The position numbers and the translations under genes are program-made. From positions 1 to 49,474 of the forward strand of contig NZ_PYGD01000017.1 in the NCBI RefSeq assembly GCF_003014535.1: a DNA stretch of 49,474 nt, in the 5' to 3' direction. The stretch comes from Taibaiella chishuiensis. GTDB lineage: Bacteria > Bacteroidota > Bacteroidia > Chitinophagales > Chitinophagaceae. This document shows, in pieces, positions 21,677-29,448 of this stretch (the stretch's first letter is position 1; the number at the start of each line of letters is the position of its first letter). Under the pieces are notes generated by a model. That model was not told the origin of the DNA and made no database searches. It saw only the letters and a list, made by a program, of their open reading frames with translations.

Positions 21677-23365
21677 TTAGTATACGTCCTTGTGGTAGCG
21701 TGATGTTACTTTCAGTTGTTCGAGATAGGCTTCGGCGGCTGCATCGGTATGCCCGCCCTGTGCTGCGATGATCTGCAGTAATGTTTGTTCTACATCTACG
21801 CTCATGGGCGCTTTGGCGCCGCAGATATACAGGCTTGCGCCTTCTTCCAGCCATTGGTAAAGCGCGGCTGCATGTTCCCGCATTTTGTCCTGCACATAGA
21901 TCTTGTGTTCCTGGTCGCGGGAGAAAGCTACGTTTACACGGTTCAATAAGCCGGTTTCGTGCCAGCTCTGGATCTCCGATTGGTACAGGAAATCGGTGTT
22001 GAAATGCTGGTCGCCGAAGAACAGCCAGTTGCGGCCATTGCCCCCGCTGGCTTCGCGTTGTGCCAGGAACGAGCGGAAGGGCGCTATACCGGTACCGGGG
22101 CCGATCATGATGATATCGCGATCGGTTTCCGGCAGGCGGAAGGCTTTATTGGGATGCACGTAGAAAGACAGTTCGTCGCCTTCGTTTAACCCCGACAGGT
22201 AACCCGAGCAAAGCCCGTATTGTTCCTGCCCGTTAAGCTGGAACCGGTCTTTACTTACGGTAAGGTGTATGGTACCCTCATGCGCTGCCGGCGCCGAGGA
22301 GATGGAGTATAACCTGGGGGCTACCGGTTCCAGCAGGCCGATCACGGCTTCAGGTGGAGTGCCCGGTGGCAGCGGGTAGATCTGTAACAGGTGCGCCAAC
22401 CCGATCTTTATTTCGGGTATCTCCTGTTTGCTGAGCGCTGCATAACCCCGTACCACGCGGCCCGGCAGGTAAGTAATATTGAGCTTGCGGTGCAGCAGCT
22501 CGTAGAGTGTGCTGTCCTGCCCTTTATAGGTAATGCGTGTGTCCGGCTGCAGGCCCAGCAGGTCGATGATCCCGGTTACCAAAGCCCCGGGGTTAGCCGG
22601 TACAATCCCCAGGGCATCGCCGGGCTCATAGTAAACGCCTGCTGCTTCCAGTTCTATATGATAGGTCTCTTTGGCAGAGCCGGTATCGTTCAGGTTAATG
22701 TGACTGCGTACCCTGCCGCTGTGGATCGCTTTGTTATGCCCGGTTGTGTTAGCGGCCAGGGTTACGGGCTGCGGCTGTTGCTGTCGCAGTTGCTGCAGGG
22801 TAGTGGCAAACCAGGTAGTAGCTGTTGTTTCGTAATCGGTATCGCATAGTTGCAAAGGCGCCAATCGTTGGCCACCGGCGCGTTCCAGCTGCCGGTCCAC
22901 ATCGATGCCGGTCTGGCAGAATAAGGGGTAGGCGCTGTCGCCCAGGCCCAGCACGGCATACTGAAGACCGGGCAGGTTAGTGTTGGTGTCGTGTATATGA
23001 TCGTAGAACGCCCGGGCCTGTGCGGGTGGCTCGCCATCGCCCTGGGTGCTGATCACCACGATCAGGCGGCTTTCCTGTTGCAGATCGGTAAGCCGGTATT
23101 GATCAAGCGCGGTAAGTTTTACGATATGGCCTGCTTTACGCGCTGTGGCGGCCAGTTTGGTGGCCAGGCTTTTGGCATTGCCGGTCTCGGTGCCGAACAG
23201 GATGCTCAGCTTTGACGGAACAGCTGCCGGTATGTTGTGTTCCGGTTGTACCTGCTGTGTTGCGGCCAGCAGGCCTTCGAGATAGCCGTTCATCCAGGCC
23301 AGTTCGGATGGACTTGCGTTTGCGGTAAGTTCGTTCCATGCGGTACGCTTCATTGCTGCCAGCAT
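21677..23365 (-). CDS. cysJ: Sulfite reductase flavoprotein subunit
   Basis: 562 aa. Passes electrons from NADPH through FAD and FMN to CysI. Flavodoxin-like domain at ~53-195 ('LSILFGTETGNAKSLA'), FAD-binding domain with 'RLYSISSAPA', NADP-binding 'MIGPGTGIAPFRSFLAQR' and 'YICGAKAPM', and the canonical C-terminal aromatic 'RYHKDVY'. The N-terminal ~45 residues ('SELAWMNGYLEGLLAATQ') form the helical segment seen in CysJ. Cofactor and cysI neighbour assignments agree. 34-bp gap to cysI, 12 bp from cobA. Confidence 0.97.
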   Translation of the reverse strand: MLAAMKRTAWNELTANASPSELAWMNGYLEGLLAATQQVQPEHNIPAAVPSKLSILFGTETGNAKSLATKLAATARKAGHIVKLTALDQYRLTDLQQESRLIVVISTQGDGEPPAQARAFYDHIHDTNTNLPGLQYAVLGLGDSAYPLFCQTGIDVDRQLERAGGQRLAPLQLCDTDYETTATTWFATTLQQLRQQQPQPVTLAANTTGHNKAIHSGRVRSHINLNDTGSAKETYHIELEAAGVYYEPGDALGIVPANPGALVTGIIDLLGLQPDTRITYKGQDSTLYELLHRKLNITYLPGRVVRGYAALSKQEIPEIKIGLAHLLQIYPLPPGTPPEAVIGLLEPVAPRLYSISSAPAAHEGTIHLTVSKDRFQLNGQEQYGLCSGYLSGLNEGDELSFYVHPNKAFRLPETDRDIIMIGPGTGIAPFRSFLAQREASGGNGRNWLFFGDQHFNTDFLYQSEIQSWHETGLLNRVNVAFSRDQEHKIYVQDKMREHAAALYQWLEEGASLYICGAKAPMSVDVEQTLLQIIAAQGGHTDAAAEAYLEQLKVTSRYHKDVY

Positions 23366-23377
23366 AATGAATATTTT

Positions 23378-24184
23378 TTAGAGTAATTGACGTTCGGGTT
23401 CTGTGGCCCGGATACGCCTGAAATAGCTGCCTTGCAGTTTACTATTGGCTTTCCAGCGGAATGCCGGGTAAAGGTTTACCACGCGGCCTATAATGATCAG
23501 GGTAGGCGAGGTATAGGTGTCCCGGATATGTTCCGTATCGGTAAAGCGGCGCAGGATCACTTTCTGGTAAGGTGTGGTAGCCTGTTCGATCACGGCTATG
23601 GCCTTATCGGGCGAAATGCCCTGCCGCACCAGGTTTTGGGCCAGGGTATGCAGTTTTTCACCCGACATATAGAAGACCAGCGTATCATTGGTCTGCGCCA
23701 GCTCCTGCCAATAGCTCTCGGGCTCTTCCTGTTTGTTGTAGAATGTGACGAAGCGTACCGAATCGGCATAACCCCGCGCAGTAAGCGGTATGCCGCAATA
23801 GGCTGCAGCGCCCGAGGCGGCGGTAATGCCGGGTACGATCTCGTAAGGGATCTGGTGCTCCTGCAGCGTACGGAGTTCATCCAGTACATTGGCGTAAAAG
23901 GCGACATCGCCGCCCTTGAGTCGTACCAGCAGCTGACCGGGTTGGTAGTATCGGACCAACAGGTCGTTGATCGAAGCCTGGCTGGCCGAGCCCTCGGCAT
24001 AACCTTCCTTGCCGGCAAAGATCACGGTGGCCCCGGGATTCACATAGGCCTGGATCAGCTCTTCACTCACGAGGCGGTCAGTAATCACTACGTCCGCTTG
24101 TTGCAGGTAGCCGGCCAGCTTTACGGTAACCAGTCCGGGATCGCCGGGTCCGGCTCCTGCAAGTATTATTTTTCCTGTATGCAT
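23378..24184 (-). CDS. cobA: Uroporphyrinogen-III C-methyltransferase (SUMT)
   Basis: 268 aa, normal SUMT length (~250-280). Uses two SAM to methylate uroporphyrinogen III to precorrin-2, first step of siroheme. Motifs: 'ILAGAGPGDPGLVTVKL' at the N-terminus, 'LVRLKGGDVAFYANVLDEL', 'VPGITAASGAAAYCGIPLTARG' and 'VFYMSGEK'. The NAD/ferrochelatase step is supplied by the fusion at 15506, so the operon encodes siroheme synthesis split over two proteins in place of a single CysG. SAM consumption here fits control by the SAM riboswitch. Confidence 0.96.
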   Translation of the reverse strand: MHTGKIILAGAGPGDPGLVTVKLAGYLQQADVVITDRLVSEELIQAYVNPGATVIFAGKEGYAEGSASQASINDLLVRYYQPGQLLVRLKGGDVAFYANVLDELRTLQEHQIPYEIVPGITAASGAAAYCGIPLTARGYADSVRFVTFYNKQEEPESYWQELAQTNDTLVFYMSGEKLHTLAQNLVRQGISPDKAIAVIEQATTPYQKVILRRFTDTEHIRDTYTSPTLIIIGRVVNLYPAFRWKANSKLQGSYFRRIRATEPERQLL

Positions 24185-24204
24185 ATTGTTTTTGATTTTA
24201 TAGA

Positions 24205-25116
24205 TTAATACAAGCCTTCGACCGAAAGGTACCTTTCACCGGTATCGTAGTTGAACGTGAGGACTGTAGCGCCTTCCGGGATATCGTGGAGCTGTTGGGC
24301 AACAGCTGCCAATGATGCGCCGGTAGAAATGCCGGCAAAGATGCCTTCCTCTCTGGCCAGGCGTTGCGCATAATGAAAGGCATCTTCTTTACCGACTTTG
24401 ATAATGCCGTCGAGCAGGGCAGTATCGAGCACCGAGGGTACGAAGCCCGCTCCGATACCCTGCAGGGGATGCGGCGAAGGCGAGCCGCCGCTCAGCACCG
24501 GCGATAGTTCGGGTTCAACGGCATATACTTTCAGTTGGGGGAAATGCTGTTTCAATACGCCGGCTACACCAGTAATATGGCCGCCGGTACCCACGCCAGT
24601 AACCAGGTAGTCGATACCATCCGGGAAGTCGGTAAGGATCTCCTGCGCTGTGGTGGCGCGGTGTATGGCTGCATTGGCTGCGTTGTCGAACTGCTGCGGG
24701 ATCCAGGAACCGGGTATCGTCGCAGCCAGTTCCTGTGCCTTTGCTATGGCGCCTTTCATGCCCAGTTCCCTGGGGGTAAGTTCGAAGCTGGCGCCATAAG
24801 CGGTCATGATGCGCCTGCGCTCTGGACTCATCGATTCGGGCATCACCAGGATGAGCTTATAACCTTTTACGGCAGCCACCAGGGCCAGGCCTATGCCGGT
24901 ATTGCCCGAGGTGGGTTCGATAATTACACTGCCGGGTTGCAGCAATCCCTGCTGTTCGGCATCTTCGATCATAGCCAGGGCTATGCGGTCTTTAATACTG
25001 GCGCCGGGGTTGTTGCGTTCCAGTTTGATCCATATGGCATTCCTGTTGCCGAATAAACGGTTGATCTGTACATGTGGCGTATTGCCTATAGTTTCGAGAA
25101 TGTTGTTCGCTTTCAT
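24205..25116 (-). CDS. cysK: Cysteine synthase (O-acetylserine sulfhydrylase)
   Basis: 303 aa from ATG 25116 ([15 protein letters not shown]); the upstream in-frame extension overlaps cysE and has no similarity. PLP enzyme condensing O-acetylserine with sulfide. Schiff-base Lys42 in '[12 protein letters not shown]', substrate loop '[10 protein letters not shown]' (69-78), the PLP-phosphate glycine loop '[10 protein letters not shown]'. The length and motifs fit CysK; CysM (thiosulfate-using) cannot be fully excluded. Gap of 13 bp to cysE, consistent with the cysteine-synthase complex CysE-CysK. Confidence 0.95.
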
Positions 25117-25129
25117 TTTTTGTGTTTTT

Positions 25130-25963
25130 TTAAATGATAAAATTGAGCGGCTCTGGCAGCGGGAATTTATCCCTGACGATGACTTCGCTTTTTTGATACA
25201 CAACGGAATAAGGCGCTACGGGCTGCGTAAGCCATACATTACCGCCGATAATGCTGTCGTGACCGATCAGGGTATCGCCGCCCAGTATGGTGGCGCCCGA
25301 ATAGATGATCACGTTGTCTCCTATCGTCGGATGCCTTTTGGCGCTGGCCAGGGCCTTGGTTACGTTGAGCGCGCCGAGGGTAACGCCCTGGTAGATCTTT
25401 ACCTGGTCGCCGATCGTGGTAGTTTCGCCGATAACGATGCCGGTACCATGGTCGATAAAGAAAGAAGAGCCGATGGTTGCGCCCGGGTGGATGTCCACGC
25501 CCGTTTTGCTGTGTGCATATTCCGACAGGATGCGCGGCAGGGTAGGGATCTGTTGCCCGTACAGCTGATGGGCGATGCGGTATACCGCTGTTGCAAAAAA
25601 GCCGGGGTATGCTACGAATACTTCTTCGATCGAAGTGGCCGCAGGATCAAAATTGACAATAGCTTCTGCATCCTTTACCAGCAAGGCATACAACCCTGGC
25701 ACTGCCTCGAAGAAGCGCTGCGTATGGGCTTCGACCTCGTCCTCCTCGTGGATCACATCGAAGATCAGGGTGGAAAAGGTATTGCGGATACGGGTATATT
25801 CTCTTTGCAGGCTTTCCCGGGTATCGTATTTGCCCCGGGCCGGCGCAAACAGGAAATGGAACAGGCTGTCGGTAAAATGTATGCCCAGTTGTTTATCCGG
25901 GAAGCTCGGCGCATTGGTATGACTGCGTTCGAACAAGGTCCTTATGAAATGGTCTTGACTCAT
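25130..25963 (-). CDS. cysE: Serine O-acetyltransferase (EpsC-type)
   Basis: 277 aa. Makes O-acetylserine from serine and acetyl-CoA. A helical N-terminal region (~30-145) precedes a left-handed beta-helix (~155-265) with hexapeptide repeats; '[29 protein letters not shown]' carries Asp157, His159 and His172 of the catalytic site. The long N-terminus is that of the EpsC/plant-like branch rather than E. coli CysE. The C-terminus ends '...LPEPLNFII', an Ile-terminated tail as needed to dock into the CysK active site. Confidence 0.95.
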
Positions 25964-25974
25964 AATATTGAAAT

Positions 25975-27228
25975 TTACAGGGCTGTTGCAGCCCGGATGA
26001 TGCCTGCACCTGCGGTCAGGTTACTGGTCTCGTCGATCAGAATCAGCCGTCCATTGCTGCTGAGCTGTTCGTAGGTATCATAGGCGAGCGGGCTTGCAGT
26101 ACGCACCCTTATTTTTACGATCTCGTTGAGTTGGGCTTTGTCGGCCGGCTGCTCTTCGAGGTTATGTACATCGAGTTTGTACAGGATCTCCTGTACGCTG
26201 CATTTTACACGGTTGCTGTGTTGTTGCAGCAGGTAGCTGTTGCCGGCTGTCAGCGGTTTATGGTCGATCCAGCAGACCAGTAGTTCCAGCTCTTTACTCA
26301 ATGCGGGGGCTTCGTCCGGTTTTACGACCAGGTCGCCGCGGCTGATATCCAGGTCGTCGGCCAGGCGCAGTACGATGCTCTGCGGGGCAAAGGCTTCTTC
26401 AACTTCGGCGCCGTCCGTTTCGATCGCAGTTATAGTACTGCTATACCCGGAAGGCAACAGGGTTACGCTATCTCCTTTGCGGTAGCTGCCGCTGGTAATA
26501 CGGCCGGCATAACCGCGGTAATCGTGCAGCTGTTCTGTTTGCGGCCGTATGATGTACTGGACCGGGAAGCGCGCGGGCTGCGGCTTTTCGTCGTTCAGCA
26601 GCGATACGGTTTCCAGGTGCTCCAGCAGCGGCTTGCCGGTATACCAGGGCAGGTTGGCTGAAGGATGTACGATATTATCGCCCTGCAATGCGCTGATCGG
26701 TATGTAGGTTACCGTTGGCAGGTTAAGGTTGCGGGCAATACCCTCGTAATCGCTTTTGATCTGTTCGAATACCTGTTGGGAATACCCGGTCAGGTCCAGC
26801 TTATTGATGGCGACCACGATATGGGGGATCTGTAAGAGCGAGGCGATCAGCGAATGCCTGCGTGTCTGTTCCTGTATGCCGTTGCGCGCATCGACCAGGA
26901 TAATGACCAGGTCGGCATTGGAAGCGCCGGTAATCATGTTGCGGGTATATTGTACATGACCCGGGGCATCGATAATGATAAATTTACGTTTGAGCGTGGC
27001 GCAGTATTTATAGGCGACGTCGATGGTAATGCCCTGTTCGCGCTCGGCACGCAGGCCGTCGGTAATCAGCGCCAGGTCGGGTATGCCGTTTTCCTGCGGC
27101 CTGCTTGCCCTTTCTACAGCCTCCAGTTGATCGGCCAAAATATTTTTGCTATCGTAGAGCAGGCGCCCGATCAGGGTGCTTTTCCCGTCGTCGACGCTGC
27201 CTGCGGTAATGAAACGAAGTATATCCAT
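25975..27228 (-). CDS. cysN: Sulfate adenylyltransferase, GTPase subunit
   Basis: 417 aa from ATG 27228 (MDILRFITAGSVDDGKS); the longer frame overlaps cysD and is rejected. EF-Tu-like GTPase that drives APS formation by CysD. G1 GSVDDGKS (10-17), G3 'DAPGHVQYTRNM', G4 'NKLD'; the beta-barrel domains II and III follow. The length shows CysN without a fused CysC (APS kinase), agreeing with an APS-type reductase downstream in the pathway. Confidence 0.96.
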   Translation of the reverse strand: MDILRFITAGSVDDGKSTLIGRLLYDSKNILADQLEAVERASRPQENGIPDLALITDGLRAEREQGITIDVAYKYCATLKRKFIIIDAPGHVQYTRNMITGASNADLVIILVDARNGIQEQTRRHSLIASLLQIPHIVVAINKLDLTGYSQQVFEQIKSDYEGIARNLNLPTVTYIPISALQGDNIVHPSANLPWYTGKPLLEHLETVSLLNDEKPQPARFPVQYIIRPQTEQLHDYRGYAGRITSGSYRKGDSVTLLPSGYSSTITAIETDGAEVEEAFAPQSIVLRLADDLDISRGDLVVKPDEAPALSKELELLVCWIDHKPLTAGNSYLLQQHSNRVKCSVQEILYKLDVHNLEEQPADKAQLNEIVKIRVRTASPLAYDTYEQLSSNGRLILIDETSNLTAGAGIIRAATAL

Positions 27229-27262: not shown

Positions 27263-28171
27263 TTAGAAATAGCCGGTCCGCTTACGGTCTTCCATAGCGG
27301 CTTCCGATACGCGGTCGTCAATGCGGGTTTCGCCGCGTTCGCTGGTGGCGGTAGCCGTAATCTCGTTGATGATGTCGTCGATGGTAACGGCTTCTGAAGC
27401 TACGGCTGCGGTGCAGGTCATGTCGCCTACGGTACGGTAGCGTACCCGCCGGTTTTGTACCTGGTCGCCTTCGTCGATGCGGATAAAGGGCGATAACGCG
27501 ATCAATTGCTGCTGGTGCTGCAGCACTTCGCGTTCGTGGGCGAAGTAGATCGAAGGCAGGTCTATCTTTTCTCTGCGTATATAATGCCAGATATCCAGCT
27601 CGGTCCAGTTGCTGATGGGAAATACCCGTACATTTTCACCTTTATGGATGCGGCCGTTAAAGATGTTCCAGAGCTCGGGCCGTTGTAGTTTCGGATCCCA
27701 TTGCCCGAATTCGTTCCTGATGGAAAAGATGCGTTCTTTGGCTCTTGCTTTTTCTTCATCCCGTCTTGCCCCGCCGATGCAGGCGTCAAAGCCAAACTCG
27801 GCTATCGTATCGAGCAGAGTATAGGTCTGCAGCGCGTTACGGCTGGCAAACTTACCTTTGTTTTCGGTCAGGCCTTTGGCTTTAATAGTGTCTTCCACCT
27901 TGCGTACGATCAGTTGTTCGCCGATGCGGGCGGCGAGCTCATCGCGGAAGTCCAGCGCTTCGGGGAAGTTGTGACCGGTGTCGATATGCACCAAAGGAAA
28001 GGGAAACTTGCCCGGCCGGAAGGCTTTAAGCGCAAGGTGTACGAGCGTTATGCTGTCTTTGCCGCCGCTGAAAAGCAGGGCTGGCCGCTCAAACTGGCCT
28101 GCGGCCTCGCGCAGGATGTGGATCGCTTCCGACTCCAGCTGCCCGAGGTAATCTAAGGAATAATCTGCCAT
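27263..28171 (-). CDS. cysD: Sulfate adenylyltransferase subunit 2
   Basis: 302 aa, standard length. ATP pyrophosphatase fold with the PP-loop SGGKDS at 35-40; converts sulfate + ATP to APS and PPi together with CysN. 'PLVHIDTGHNFPEALDFRDEL', 'IGGARRDEEKARAKERIFS' and 'FPISNWTELDIWHYI' are hallmark CysD segments, and the C-terminal '...DRVSEAAMEDRKRTGYF' is fully typical. 28 bp after cysH and 34 bp before cysN. Confidence 0.98.
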   Translation of the reverse strand: MADYSLDYLGQLESEAIHILREAAGQFERPALLFSGGKDSITLVHLALKAFRPGKFPFPLVHIDTGHNFPEALDFRDELAARIGEQLIVRKVEDTIKAKGLTENKGKFASRNALQTYTLLDTIAEFGFDACIGGARRDEEKARAKERIFSIRNEFGQWDPKLQRPELWNIFNGRIHKGENVRVFPISNWTELDIWHYIRREKIDLPSIYFAHEREVLQHQQQLIALSPFIRIDEGDQVQNRRVRYRTVGDMTCTAAVASEAVTIDDIINEITATATSERGETRIDDRVSEAAMEDRKRTGYF

Positions 28172-28199: not shown

Positions 28200-28922
28200 T
28201 TAAGTAGAAATGGAAGGGTGCCGGTGTAGCCCGCATTCCTTTTTGCTGTTGTCCTCCCACCACCAGCGGCCGGCCCTGAAGTCCTCGCCGGCTTTGATGG
28301 CCCGGGTACAGGGCGCACAGCCTATGCTTACATAACCCTGGTCGTGTAAGGTGTTGTAGGGCACATGGTGTTTGCGGATATGTTCTTTAACAGCGGCTGT
28401 ATCCCAATGCAGTAAAGGGTTGTATTTGATGATGCGGTTATGCTCATCCCATTCGAACAGCCCGAGGTTTTCGCGGTTGGGCGAGTGTTCGGCCCGCAGG
28501 CCGGTAACCCATACGGCATGACCGCTGAGCGCACGTTGCAGCGGCGCTACCTTGCGGATATGGCAGCAGTTTTTGCGGTGTTCTACGGATTGGTAAAAAG
28601 CATCGGGGCCATTGGTCTCCACGAAAGCCTCCAGTACAGCGGCATCCGGGTAGTAGGCTTTTATGGACAGGTCGTAAGTCTGCCGGGTAGTTTGCCATAA
28701 GGTATAGGTCTGGCTGAAGAGCCGGCCGGTATCCAATGTAAATACAGACACCGGCAGGTTATGCGCGGCAATGATCTGCGTAATGACCTGGTCTTCGTAG
28801 CTGAAGCTGGAAGAGAACGTAACGGCGCCCGGGTGGCGCTCGGTGAGCCATGCCAAAGTTGCGGCAATAGATAGCCCTGCTGTCTCCGCATGGAGCTGAG
28901 CGGGCGTAAGGAAATGATCCAT
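28200..28922 (-). CDS. cysH: Adenylylsulfate (APS) reductase, [4Fe-4S] type
   Basis: 240 aa from ATG 28922 (MDHFLTPAQLH); an in-frame ATG at 29015 adds 31 residues unlike the family and passes through a hairpin. Reduces APS to sulfite using thioredoxin. 'FSSSFSYEDQVI' is the substrate loop; the cluster ligands Cys119-Cys120 and Cys202-x-x-Cys205 (CAPC) mark the APS-using, iron-sulfur type rather than PAPS-using E. coli CysH; the catalytic Cys230 lies in 'KKECGLH'. First enzyme gene of the ten-gene operon, 136 bp after the polycysteine leader. Confidence 0.95.
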   Translation of the reverse strand: MDHFLTPAQLHAETAGLSIAATLAWLTERHPGAVTFSSSFSYEDQVITQIIAAHNLPVSVFTLDTGRLFSQTYTLWQTTRQTYDLSIKAYYPDAAVLEAFVETNGPDAFYQSVEHRKNCCHIRKVAPLQRALSGHAVWVTGLRAEHSPNRENLGLFEWDEHNRIIKYNPLLHWDTAAVKEHIRKHHVPYNTLHDQGYVSIGCAPCTRAIKAGEDFRAGRWWWEDNSKKECGLHRHPSIST

Positions 28923-28983
28923 AACGGCCTGGTTGAAAAAAACGGGAAAAATAAAGGAAGGCCCGGGAGTGATGCAGCTGTAA

Positions 28984-29010
28984 ATGCTTTTATCCCGCAG
29001 GGATAAGCAT
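28984..29010 (-). promoter_or_regulatory. Hairpin between leader peptide and cysH
   Basis: ATGCT-TATCCC-gca-GGGATA-AGCAT with a 2-nt bulge on one side. It lies between the leader ORF stop (29059) and the cysH start (28922). No T-tract follows, so it is not an ordinary intrinsic terminator; it may take part in attenuation or mRNA processing. Inference from structure only. Confidence 0.4.
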
Positions 29011-29058
29011 AACAAGGACTACATCAATAAAAAACGGGCGGAAATGTTGTGCAGGAGA

Positions 29059-29160
29059 TTAGCAACAACAGCAAAAGCAGGAACAACAACAAGCCATCAT
29101 CAATGCTGCGTGGGTAGGAGCATGTAATGACTGCAGAGCGGCTGTTGTTTGCTTGTTCAT
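29059..29160 (-). CDS. Polycysteine leader peptide upstream of cysH
   Basis: 33-codon ORF (ATG 29160, TAA 29059-29061). It begins MNKQTTAALQSLHAP and ends MMACCCSCFCCCC, with eight cysteines in the last ten codons, directly before the stop. It lies between the terminator of the SAM-I riboswitch and cysH, on the same transcript. Run-of-Cys upstream ORFs in mycobacteria regulate sulfur genes by ribosome stalling when charged tRNA-Cys is low; the same logic is inferred here. GTTGT within the Cys codons can pair with ACAAC just past the stop, a structure a stalled ribosome would block. An alternative is a translated metal-binding peptide. The annotation rests on codon content and position. Confidence 0.75.
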   Translation of the reverse strand: MNKQTTAALQSLHAPTHAALMMACCCSCFCCCC

Positions 29161-29259: not shown

Positions 29260-29307
29260 CTGGTATCTGGAATGCCGTTGCCGGTCTATCGATTAACTGA
29301 GCATCTT

Positions 29308-29410
29308 CTTATCTATCCTTTTCTGGATGGAGTTAGCACCTTTTACTGTCGTTGCCGGAGTCGGTTGCTAAGGCTTCACAGGGCCATTTCCCTCTGCCTT
29401 TCTGGATAAG
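29308..29410 (-). promoter_or_regulatory. SAM-I (S-box) riboswitch aptamer
   Basis: Minus-strand RNA of about 103 nt. P1 is CTTATC (29410-29405) with GATAAG (29313-29308). Conserved blocks in order: CCAGA, GAGGGA, TGGCCC, TGAAGCC, GCAACC, then after a variable P3, GGTGCTAACTCC and the P4 hairpin CC-agaaaa-GG. This matches the SAM-I consensus closely. It binds S-adenosylmethionine and, with the terminator at 29227-29259, should switch the sulfate-assimilation operon off when SAM is plentiful. Confidence 0.95.
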
Positions 29411-29417
29411 TGATGTG

Positions 29418-29448
29418 CAAATGTAGCGGTATTTTTCAAACTGCCAAA
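29418..29448 (-). promoter_or_regulatory. Promoter of the sulfur-assimilation operon
   Basis: Minus strand: TTTG (29448-29445), 19 bp, TACATTTG (29425-29418). This is the full Bacteroidota sigma-ABfr consensus with ideal spacing; transcription would start a few bases before the riboswitch aptamer at 29410. The remainder of the gap to 29599 shows nothing further. Confidence 0.8.

What the first reader, a model, noticed from the sequence alone, without database searches (positions are those of the whole stretch)
29059..29160. Polycysteine leader peptide, absent from conventional gene calls, before the sulfate-assimilation operon
A 33-codon ORF on the minus strand ends CCCSCFCCCC-stop: eight Cys in ten codons, immediately before the TAA, 136 bp ahead of cysH. 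A Cys run right before a stop and upstream of cysteine-biosynthesis genes is the expected design of a leader that reports charged tRNA-Cys. Such polycysteine uORFs are known from mycobacteria; I am not aware of one described in Bacteroidota. GTTGT inside the Cys codons can pair with ACAAC after the stop, so a stalled ribosome would change the RNA fold.
Basis: partly seen in the sequence, partly recalled or inferred. Interest (0 to 1): 0.88.

Follow-up and report, generated by a model that had tools for sequence, protein, structure and literature searches.

The report
Cysteine-sensing leader peptides in Bacteroidota
A tiny gene that ends in a run of cysteine codons sits before the sulfate-assimilation genes, and similar ones sit before other cysteine-related genes in related bacteria, so it probably lets the cell switch these genes on when charged cysteine tRNA runs low.

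Summary
In detail: a 33-codon ORF (29160-29059, minus strand) ends CCCSCFCCCC-stop, 136 nt before cysH. It is not chance. With one genome per genus in the window's family, 21 of 56 cysH upstream regions have an ATG-started short ORF with four or more Cys in its last ten residues; no other amino acid exceeds 2 of 56. Of 406 control genes one has such an ORF, a porin behind a cys operon. Pattern scans not aimed at any gene led to cysS (cysteinyl-tRNA synthetase) and a metX-like gene; surveys then found leaders at 22 of 70 cysS and 13 of 30 metX-like loci. The cysS link points to charged tRNA-Cys as the signal. N-termini vary; the Cys tail at the stop and a C-rich, G-poor gap recur. Intrinsic terminators are not general. 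I favour ribosome-mediated attenuation, with Rho-dependent termination or start-codon hiding as output. In the window a 15-bp stem can hide the cysH start codon, and a SAM-I riboswitch lies in tandem. Poly-Cys leaders are known in Actinobacteria, and a cysS uORF with Cys codons in Rhodobacterales; my searches showed none in Bacteroidota. No expression data were available.

The parts
29418..29448 (-). putative promoter: TTTG at 29448-29445, 19 nt, TACATTTG at 29425-29418
   Evidence: read against the flavobacterial consensus TAnnTTTG (-12 to -5) quoted in PMC9723704 (passage); the -33 TTTG is recalled; no TSS data
29306..29412 (-). SAM-I riboswitch aptamer
   Evidence: Rfam RF00162, 69.7 bits
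29227..29260 (-). intrinsic terminator of the SAM-I expression platform (hairpin plus T tract), upstream of the leader ORF
   Evidence: hairpin of -13.3 kcal/mol next to a T-rich stretch; not reported by the scan, whose loop limit is 8
29059..29160 (-). polycysteine leader ORF, 33 codons plus TAA
   Evidence: recurrence
29062..29091 (-). Cys tail: codons C24-C26, C28, C30-C33, directly before the stop
   Evidence: in 52 of 69 leaders Cys is the last residue before the stop
29045..29070 (-). small hairpin of last Cys codons (29070-29062) with 29052-29045, stop codon in the loop
   Evidence: MFE fold
28923..29058 (-). gap between leader stop and cysH, C 0.28 and G 0.15
   Evidence: gap without its last 12 nt
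28917..29104 (-). long-range stem: left arm 29104-29084 (Leu-Met-Met-Ala-Cys-Cys-Cys codons) with right arm 28935-28917, covering the cysH start codon
   Evidence: fold z -4.34, 0 of 200 shuffles as stable; duplex -20.4 kcal/mol, 3 of 200 shuffles as strong; not a family-wide feature
28200..28922 (-). cysH (APS/PAPS reductase), first gene of the operon
27263..28171 (-). cysD (sulfate adenylyltransferase small subunit)
25975..27228 (-). cysN (sulfate adenylyltransferase large subunit)
   Evidence: TIGR02034 over its cut-off
21677..25963 (-). following ORFs: serine acetyltransferase-like, cysteine synthase-like, siroheme methyltransferase-like and sulfite reductase flavoprotein-like
   Evidence: ORFs; names recalled from the sequences, no family search run on them

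Best explanation
The ORF is a cis-acting leader peptide that reports charged tRNA-Cys. SHOWN (by comparison): it lies upstream of the sulfate-assimilation operon, in the Cys reading frame, with Cys codons placed at the stop, and leaders of the same design stand before cysH, cysS and metX-like genes in other Bacteroidota. When Cys-tRNA is short, a ribosome stalls on the Cys codons next to the stop and the operon stays on. For the output step I give about 0.5 to Rho-dependent termination on the C-rich, G-poor, little-structured gap (as at the E. coli tna leader) and about 0.35 to hiding of the start codon. In the window itself start hiding has its own support: a 15-bp stem pairs codons up to the first Cys cluster with the cysH AUG. 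If a ribosome covers about 15 nt upstream of its P site (recalled), one stalled on C24 to about C30 would cover part or all of the left arm, one at C32, C33 or the stop would not. Upstream, a SAM-I riboswitch with its own terminator adds a second condition, so the operon should be fully on only when both SAM and Cys-tRNA are low.
For: Amino-acid and frame specificity: cysH, 21 of 56 genus representatives with a Cys-rich tail, Leu 2, Val 0, all others 0; cysS, Cys 19 of 70, Leu 4, Phe and Ile 1 each; 406 control genes, Cys 1 (Fisher p 2e-20 and 3e-16). The one control hit is L105, a porin behind cysN. Looser rule: cysS 22 of 70 loci, which are 22 of 63 genera, leaders such as MNAPRLLFCCCC and MKIFYNTYCCCC; metX-like 13 of 30 loci, 7 of 13 genera, 7 of the 13 loci from one genus. 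Scans not aimed at any gene: of 15 in-frame leaders outside long ORFs, five precede cysS, one cysH, one a metX-like gene. TAnnTTTG within 110 nt upstream of the leader start in 36 of 47 cysH leaders (4.0 expected from shuffles) and in the gap in 0 of 47, so the leader is probably transcribed. Gap C-G skew median +0.38 (cysH, n=46) and +0.30 (cysS, n=22) against -0.03 in 297 controls and -0.03 in 57 leaderless cysH loci; with one locus per genus +0.44, positive in 24 of 24. Gap less structured than shuffles (z +0.68 and +0.37). Rho is encoded.
Against: No transcript, ribosome footprint or expression data. 32 of 56 genus representatives lack a clear cysH leader; two of three other genomes of the window's genus have no cysH match, and the leader of the third (L004) has an unrelated N-terminus. 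The window genome's own cysS has none (L304). The window's gap is unusually structured (z -3.6), unlike the family trend, which weakens the Rho step there. The start-hiding stem is not general (mean z -0.19 in both sets). Folding the whole 514-nt 5' region gives another structure in which Cys codons pair with the aptamer. Of the 15 scan leaders, two precede a PhyH-type gene, four precede genes without an evident cysteine link (glutamate-type dehydrogenase, carbonic anhydrase, 3-hydroxyacyl-CoA dehydrogenase, a CarboxypepD_reg-like ORF) and two precede no gene seen.
Confidence: 0.85

Rival explanations
1. A variant inside the best explanation: translational attenuator only. The leader RNA hides the cysH start and a stalled ribosome opens it; Rho plays no part.
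For: Window: stem covering the AUG, fold z -4.34, duplex as strong in 3 of 200 shuffles, start accessibility 0.48 free and 0.63 with a stalled ribosome (all RNA upstream of the ribosome's leading edge was simply removed in that model). Family: mean opening 0.072 against 0.041 in shuffles (sd of mean 0.012) for 47 cysH leaders. A review passage (PMC9031893) describes the mycobacterial poly-Cys leaders as acting on translation.
Against: No opening beyond shuffles for 22 cysS leaders (0.037 and 0.037); no general pairing of the leader with the gene start; does not explain the C-rich gap.
Confidence: 0.35
2. Classic transcription attenuator with an intrinsic terminator between leader and gene, as in trp or in the uORFC-8-2 motif.
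For: Hairpins of -5 kcal/mol or better before T-rich stretches in 16 of 47 cysH and 8 of 22 cysS leaders.
Against: At -8 kcal/mol only 7 of 47 and 3 of 22, several of them using the Cys codons and without a proper T tract; the SAM-I terminator of the window scores -13.3 by the same test. No shuffle control was run for this count.
Confidence: 0.1
3. The TTG/TGT run is a DNA element (promoter -33 box) and the ORF is incidental.
For: At cysS, TAnnTTTG lies between leader stop and gene in 12 of 22 loci (1.1 expected from shuffles), in 8 of these at 9-13 nt after the stop, which could place a -33 box over the Cys codons.
Against: Only the Cys frame is used: Val (GTT frame) 0 and Leu (TTG frame) 2 of 56 at cysH, Val 0 and Leu 4 of 70 at cysS. 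The box is in none of 47 gaps before cysH. 52 of 69 leaders have Cys right at the stop.
Confidence: 0.05
4. The peptide acts in trans, for example as a thiol- or metal-binding peptide or as a sensing nascent chain.
For: Clustered Cys can bind metals (general knowledge).
Against: N-termini and lengths (11 residues upward; starts of the long ones uncertain) are not conserved between genera, and leaders sit directly before the regulated genes; cysS as target fits tRNA charging better.
Confidence: 0.04
5. Chance ORF without function.
For: The ORF is short, matches no family model, and has no counterpart upstream of cysS in the same genome.
Against: Statistics; the only site of its kind outside long ORFs in the genome.
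Confidence: 0.02

Closest known systems
Polycysteine leaderless uORFs of mycobacteria (Canestrari et al. 2020; paper not held; known here from its title in reference lists, a review passage, and passages of PMC9094748)
   Same: short upstream ORF with contiguous Cys codons, cysteine-responsive attenuation of operonic genes
   Different: different phylum; where a promoter box is found, cysH leaders start roughly 15-90 nt behind the expected start site, and the window's about 250 nt; some cysS leaders look leaderless; SAM-I riboswitch in tandem in the window
Candidate cys leader peptides of Actinobacteria (Seliverstov et al. 2005, PMC1262725; passages seen)
   Same: runs of Cys codons near the stop, no conserved terminator, Rho suggested, polyY motifs in the gap
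   Different: reported for Mycobacterium, Propionibacterium acnes and Bifidobacterium longum cbs; the authors called the Rho-site prediction weak because the motifs were not conserved
uORFC-8-2 motif upstream of cysS in Rhodobacterales (PMC8632094; passages seen)
   Same: uORF with Cys codons before cysS, ribosome-mediated attenuation proposed
   Different: two tandem Cys codons usually at positions 14-15, two stems and an intrinsic terminator; I saw no general terminator here
tna leader TnaC of E. coli (recalled; named as a model in PMC1262725)
   Same: a stalled ribosome at the stop could keep Rho off a downstream rut site
   Different: TnaC stalls by sensing free tryptophan through the nascent chain; here shortage of charged tRNA is proposed
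SAM-I riboswitch (RF00162)
   Same: present in the window upstream of the leader
   Different: a separate element; in tandem with a polycysteine leader in the window and L031 only, among the window and 39 loci scanned

Membership tests
polycysteine leader attenuator (Actinobacteria type) | short ORF with a run of Cys codons near its stop, upstream of a Cys-related gene | tested here: met
polycysteine leader attenuator (Actinobacteria type) | leaderless start of the uORF (mycobacterial form) | tested here: not met
   the window ORF lies about 250 nt behind the putative promoter; in relatives 7 of 22 cysS leaders have TAnnTTTG 12-15 nt before the ATG, which suggests leaderless starts there; no TSS data
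polycysteine leader attenuator (Actinobacteria type) | cysteine-responsive expression of the downstream gene | not testable with these tools
   needs reporter or RNA data
intrinsic-terminator attenuator (trp type, uORFC-8-2) | hairpin plus T tract between leader and gene, alternative to an antiterminator | tested here: not met
   not general; the window is not among the twelve strongest cysH candidates printed
Rho-dependent attenuator (tna type) | C-rich, G-poor, unstructured RNA after the leader stop | tested here: inconclusive
   met for the set; the window's gap is C-rich but structured (z -3.6)
Rho-dependent attenuator (tna type) | loss of attenuation when Rho is impaired | not testable with these tools
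   Rho is encoded in the genome
translational attenuator | start codon of the regulated gene paired in the ground state and freed by a stalled ribosome | tested here: inconclusive
   supported for the window (but), modest for the cysH set, absent for the cysS set
SAM-I riboswitch | aptamer match above gathering score with terminator platform | tested here: met

The most novel reading that the evidence does not exclude
A tRNA-Cys regulon spread through Bacteroidota: one simple leader design (short ORF, Cys run at the stop, C-rich Rho-loading gap) arose or moved repeatedly in front of unrelated genes (sulfate assimilation, cysS, metX-like, a porin, a PhyH-type dioxygenase), works through Rho rather than intrinsic terminators, and in some genomes is stacked behind a SAM-I riboswitch to form a two-input gate.
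Probability: 0.45. Interest if true: 0.82.

Novelty: new variant of a known kind. Interest (0 to 1): 0.72.

Why it matters
How Bacteroidota sense cysteine supply is, to my knowledge, little known. A leader of this kind would be a sensor that needs no dedicated protein, is too short for usual gene calls, and can be recognised by a simple rule, so that sulfur-related roles can be predicted for genes behind it (for example the PhyH-type dioxygenase and the OprP-like porin). The tandem with SAM-I makes a testable two-signal gate at the head of sulfate assimilation.

Tried and rejected
Intrinsic terminators in the gap: not general; the scan reported none, but it also misses the SAM-I terminator, so it is no fair test. 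Conserved start-hiding helix: suggestive in genus g85 and in the window, not family-wide; a genus search for more sequences gave only the five genomes already held. SAM-I as a regular partner: 39 loci were scanned; of 8 SAM-I hits six are on the strand opposite to cysH, one is in tandem with a leader (L031) and one stands before cysH without leader (L051). cysH leaders in other named lineages: 8 of 80 named loci, two of them genomes already held (L075 = L005, L086 = L057); none of the Flavobacterium, Pedobacter, Mucilaginibacter or Sphingobacterium loci among the 80 has one before cysH. One search kept the best 80 of 583 relatives. Rows dropped: L002, L075 and L086 as duplicates; L274 (leader 283 nt away) and L138 by the gap rule. 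Of 73 genera with a match, 17 were not fetched: g24, g76, g78, g100 (places listed, mostly short contigs) and 13 whose places were not listed (g7, g9, g16, g49, g51, g53, g54, g58, g63, g68, g70, g84, g95). The 47 cysH leaders include several per genus; the one-per-genus skew is. Second-promoter-like boxes at cysS were seen but not pursued.

Full report
What is there. The ORF at 29160-29059 on the minus strand reads MNKQTTAALQSLHAPTHAALMMACCCSCFCCCC and stops 136 nt before cysH. CysH, CysD and CysN are confirmed by NCBIfam; the following genes are named from their ORFs only. A SAM-I aptamer and its terminator lie upstream of the ORF.

Chance. Four Cys codons plus a stop occur 8 times in the genome. 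Seven of these sites lie inside long ORFs; the window site is the only other one. In the family I took one genome per genus (16 genera from the best matches, 40 more; 56 of the 73 genera with a match). With an ATG start, a stop 15-180 nt upstream and four or more copies of a residue in the last ten, Cys scores 21 of 56, Leu 2, all others 0. Upstream of 406 other ORFs of 200 aa or more in loci L035-L154 Cys scores 1, and that one is the porin behind the cys operon of L105 (p 2e-20). With any start codon and four Cys in the last twelve residues, 24 of 56 genera are positive.

Who else has it. cysH leaders occur in the window's family, in a second family of the order (3 of 30 loci, 3 of the 5 with a close CysH) and in Rufibacter ruber (L078), which belongs to Cytophagales. 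The leader most like the window's by eye is L048, MNKQTTAASLHLTVRNRATVMAACCCTRTCCCCCM: N-terminus and Cys tail kept, the middle changed.

Other targets. Scans of 296, 395 and 294 genomes for four, six and five Cys codons plus stop were not aimed at any gene (not all sites were listed or fetched). In the fetched loci 15 in-frame leaders lie outside long ORFs (3, 9, 3). Five precede cysS (L165, identified by its place; L204 and L383; L214, translated; L236, the query), one cysH (L168), one a metX-like gene (L209: MetX is the best NCBIfam match, 4e-98, but below the curated cut-offs), two a PhyH-family gene (L184, L206), four other genes and two no gene seen. Following up, 22 of 70 cysS loci have a leader within 200 nt (23 of 70 within 400 nt), in 22 of 63 genera. 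Of the 30 best metX-like loci of family f6, 13 have one, in 7 of 13 genera; seven of the 13 are from one genus, two overlap the estimated gene start, and L404 has no upstream sequence. Two of three PhyH-type matches in f5 have one. A leader before cysteinyl-tRNA synthetase is what a sensor of charged tRNA-Cys predicts.

Anatomy. Over 69 leaders (47 cysH, 22 cysS) Cys is the last residue in 52; the median gap is 67 nt. TAnnTTTG lies within 110 nt upstream of 36 of 47 cysH leaders (4.0 expected from shuffles) and in none of the 47 gaps; for cysS it lies upstream in 9 of 22 (1.4 expected) and in the gap in 12 of 22 (1.1 expected). Where it stands 12-15 nt before the cysS leader ATG (7 of 22), the mRNA would be nearly leaderless if the spacing given for F. 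psychrophilum holds; no start site is mapped.

How it works. The gap is C-rich and G-poor: median skew +0.38 and +0.30 against -0.03 in controls, -0.03 in 57 leaderless cysH loci, and +0.44 with one leader per genus (24 of 24 positive); part of the skew extends into the leader ORF before the Cys codons. The gap is less structured than shuffles. This fits loading of Rho after the ribosome leaves, with a ribosome stalled on the Cys codons standing in the way. Intrinsic terminators are not general. Against a pure Rho view, the cysH set opens its start on stalling slightly more than shuffles, and the window has a stable fold (z -4.34) in which a 15-bp stem hides the cysH AUG. That stem is not shared by the family, and a fold of the whole 5' region looks different. 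The output step may therefore differ between genomes.

What is known. Passages of PMC1262725 report Cys-run leaders in Actinobacteria without terminators and suggest Rho. Passages of PMC8632094 report a uORF with Cys codons before cysS in Rhodobacterales with a terminator. Passages of PMC9031893 and PMC9094748 refer to the mycobacterial work of Canestrari et al., which I could not read. Passages of PMC9723704 mention leader-peptide attenuation before amino-acid operons of F. psychrophilum without naming cysteine; its supplements were not open to me. Passages of PMC7366714 mention sORFs in B. thetaiotaomicron 5' UTRs without naming cysteine. Ten searches showed no polycysteine leader in Bacteroidota in their listings; subscription papers were not covered, and Lopatovskaya et al. 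2010 (seen only in a reference list) was not looked up. I file it as a new variant of a known kind.

Noticed in passing
L014, L018, L024, L059, L061, L074 and others, upstream of cysH: An imperfect palindrome of the form CTACnnnnTnAGTAGACTA lies at or just behind the putative promoter of many cysH leaders and in related form before cysH loci without leader; possibly an operator. An Rrf2-like gene (name recalled from its sequence) stands beside the cys operon of L127.
   Followed up: no
L184:645-1448, L206:1574-2377, L416: A PhyH-family gene in family f5 carries a leader ending in 7 to 9 Cys (one Ser inserted in L416), 52 nt upstream; only 3 of 149 genomes searched hold a match to the protein, one of them weak.
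   Followed up: partly
L105:7286-8413: A phosphate-selective-porin-family gene behind cysN in Mucilaginibacter sp. RYN_311 has a leader ending CCCCCCC; it may take up a sulfur compound.
   Followed up: partly
cysS loci such as L343, L316, L310: TAnnTTTG box 9-13 nt after the leader stop in 8 of 22 cysS leaders: perhaps a second promoter whose -33 box overlaps the Cys codons.
   Followed up: partly
L356: Leader MNNKSFYMTSAFTAVYYRCCCCC 70 nt upstream of a Glu/Leu/Phe/Val dehydrogenase gene; link to cysteine unclear.
   Followed up: no
L001 (G000:C8:84397-84500): Second SAM-I riboswitch of the genome (82.6 bits); downstream gene not examined.
   Followed up: no
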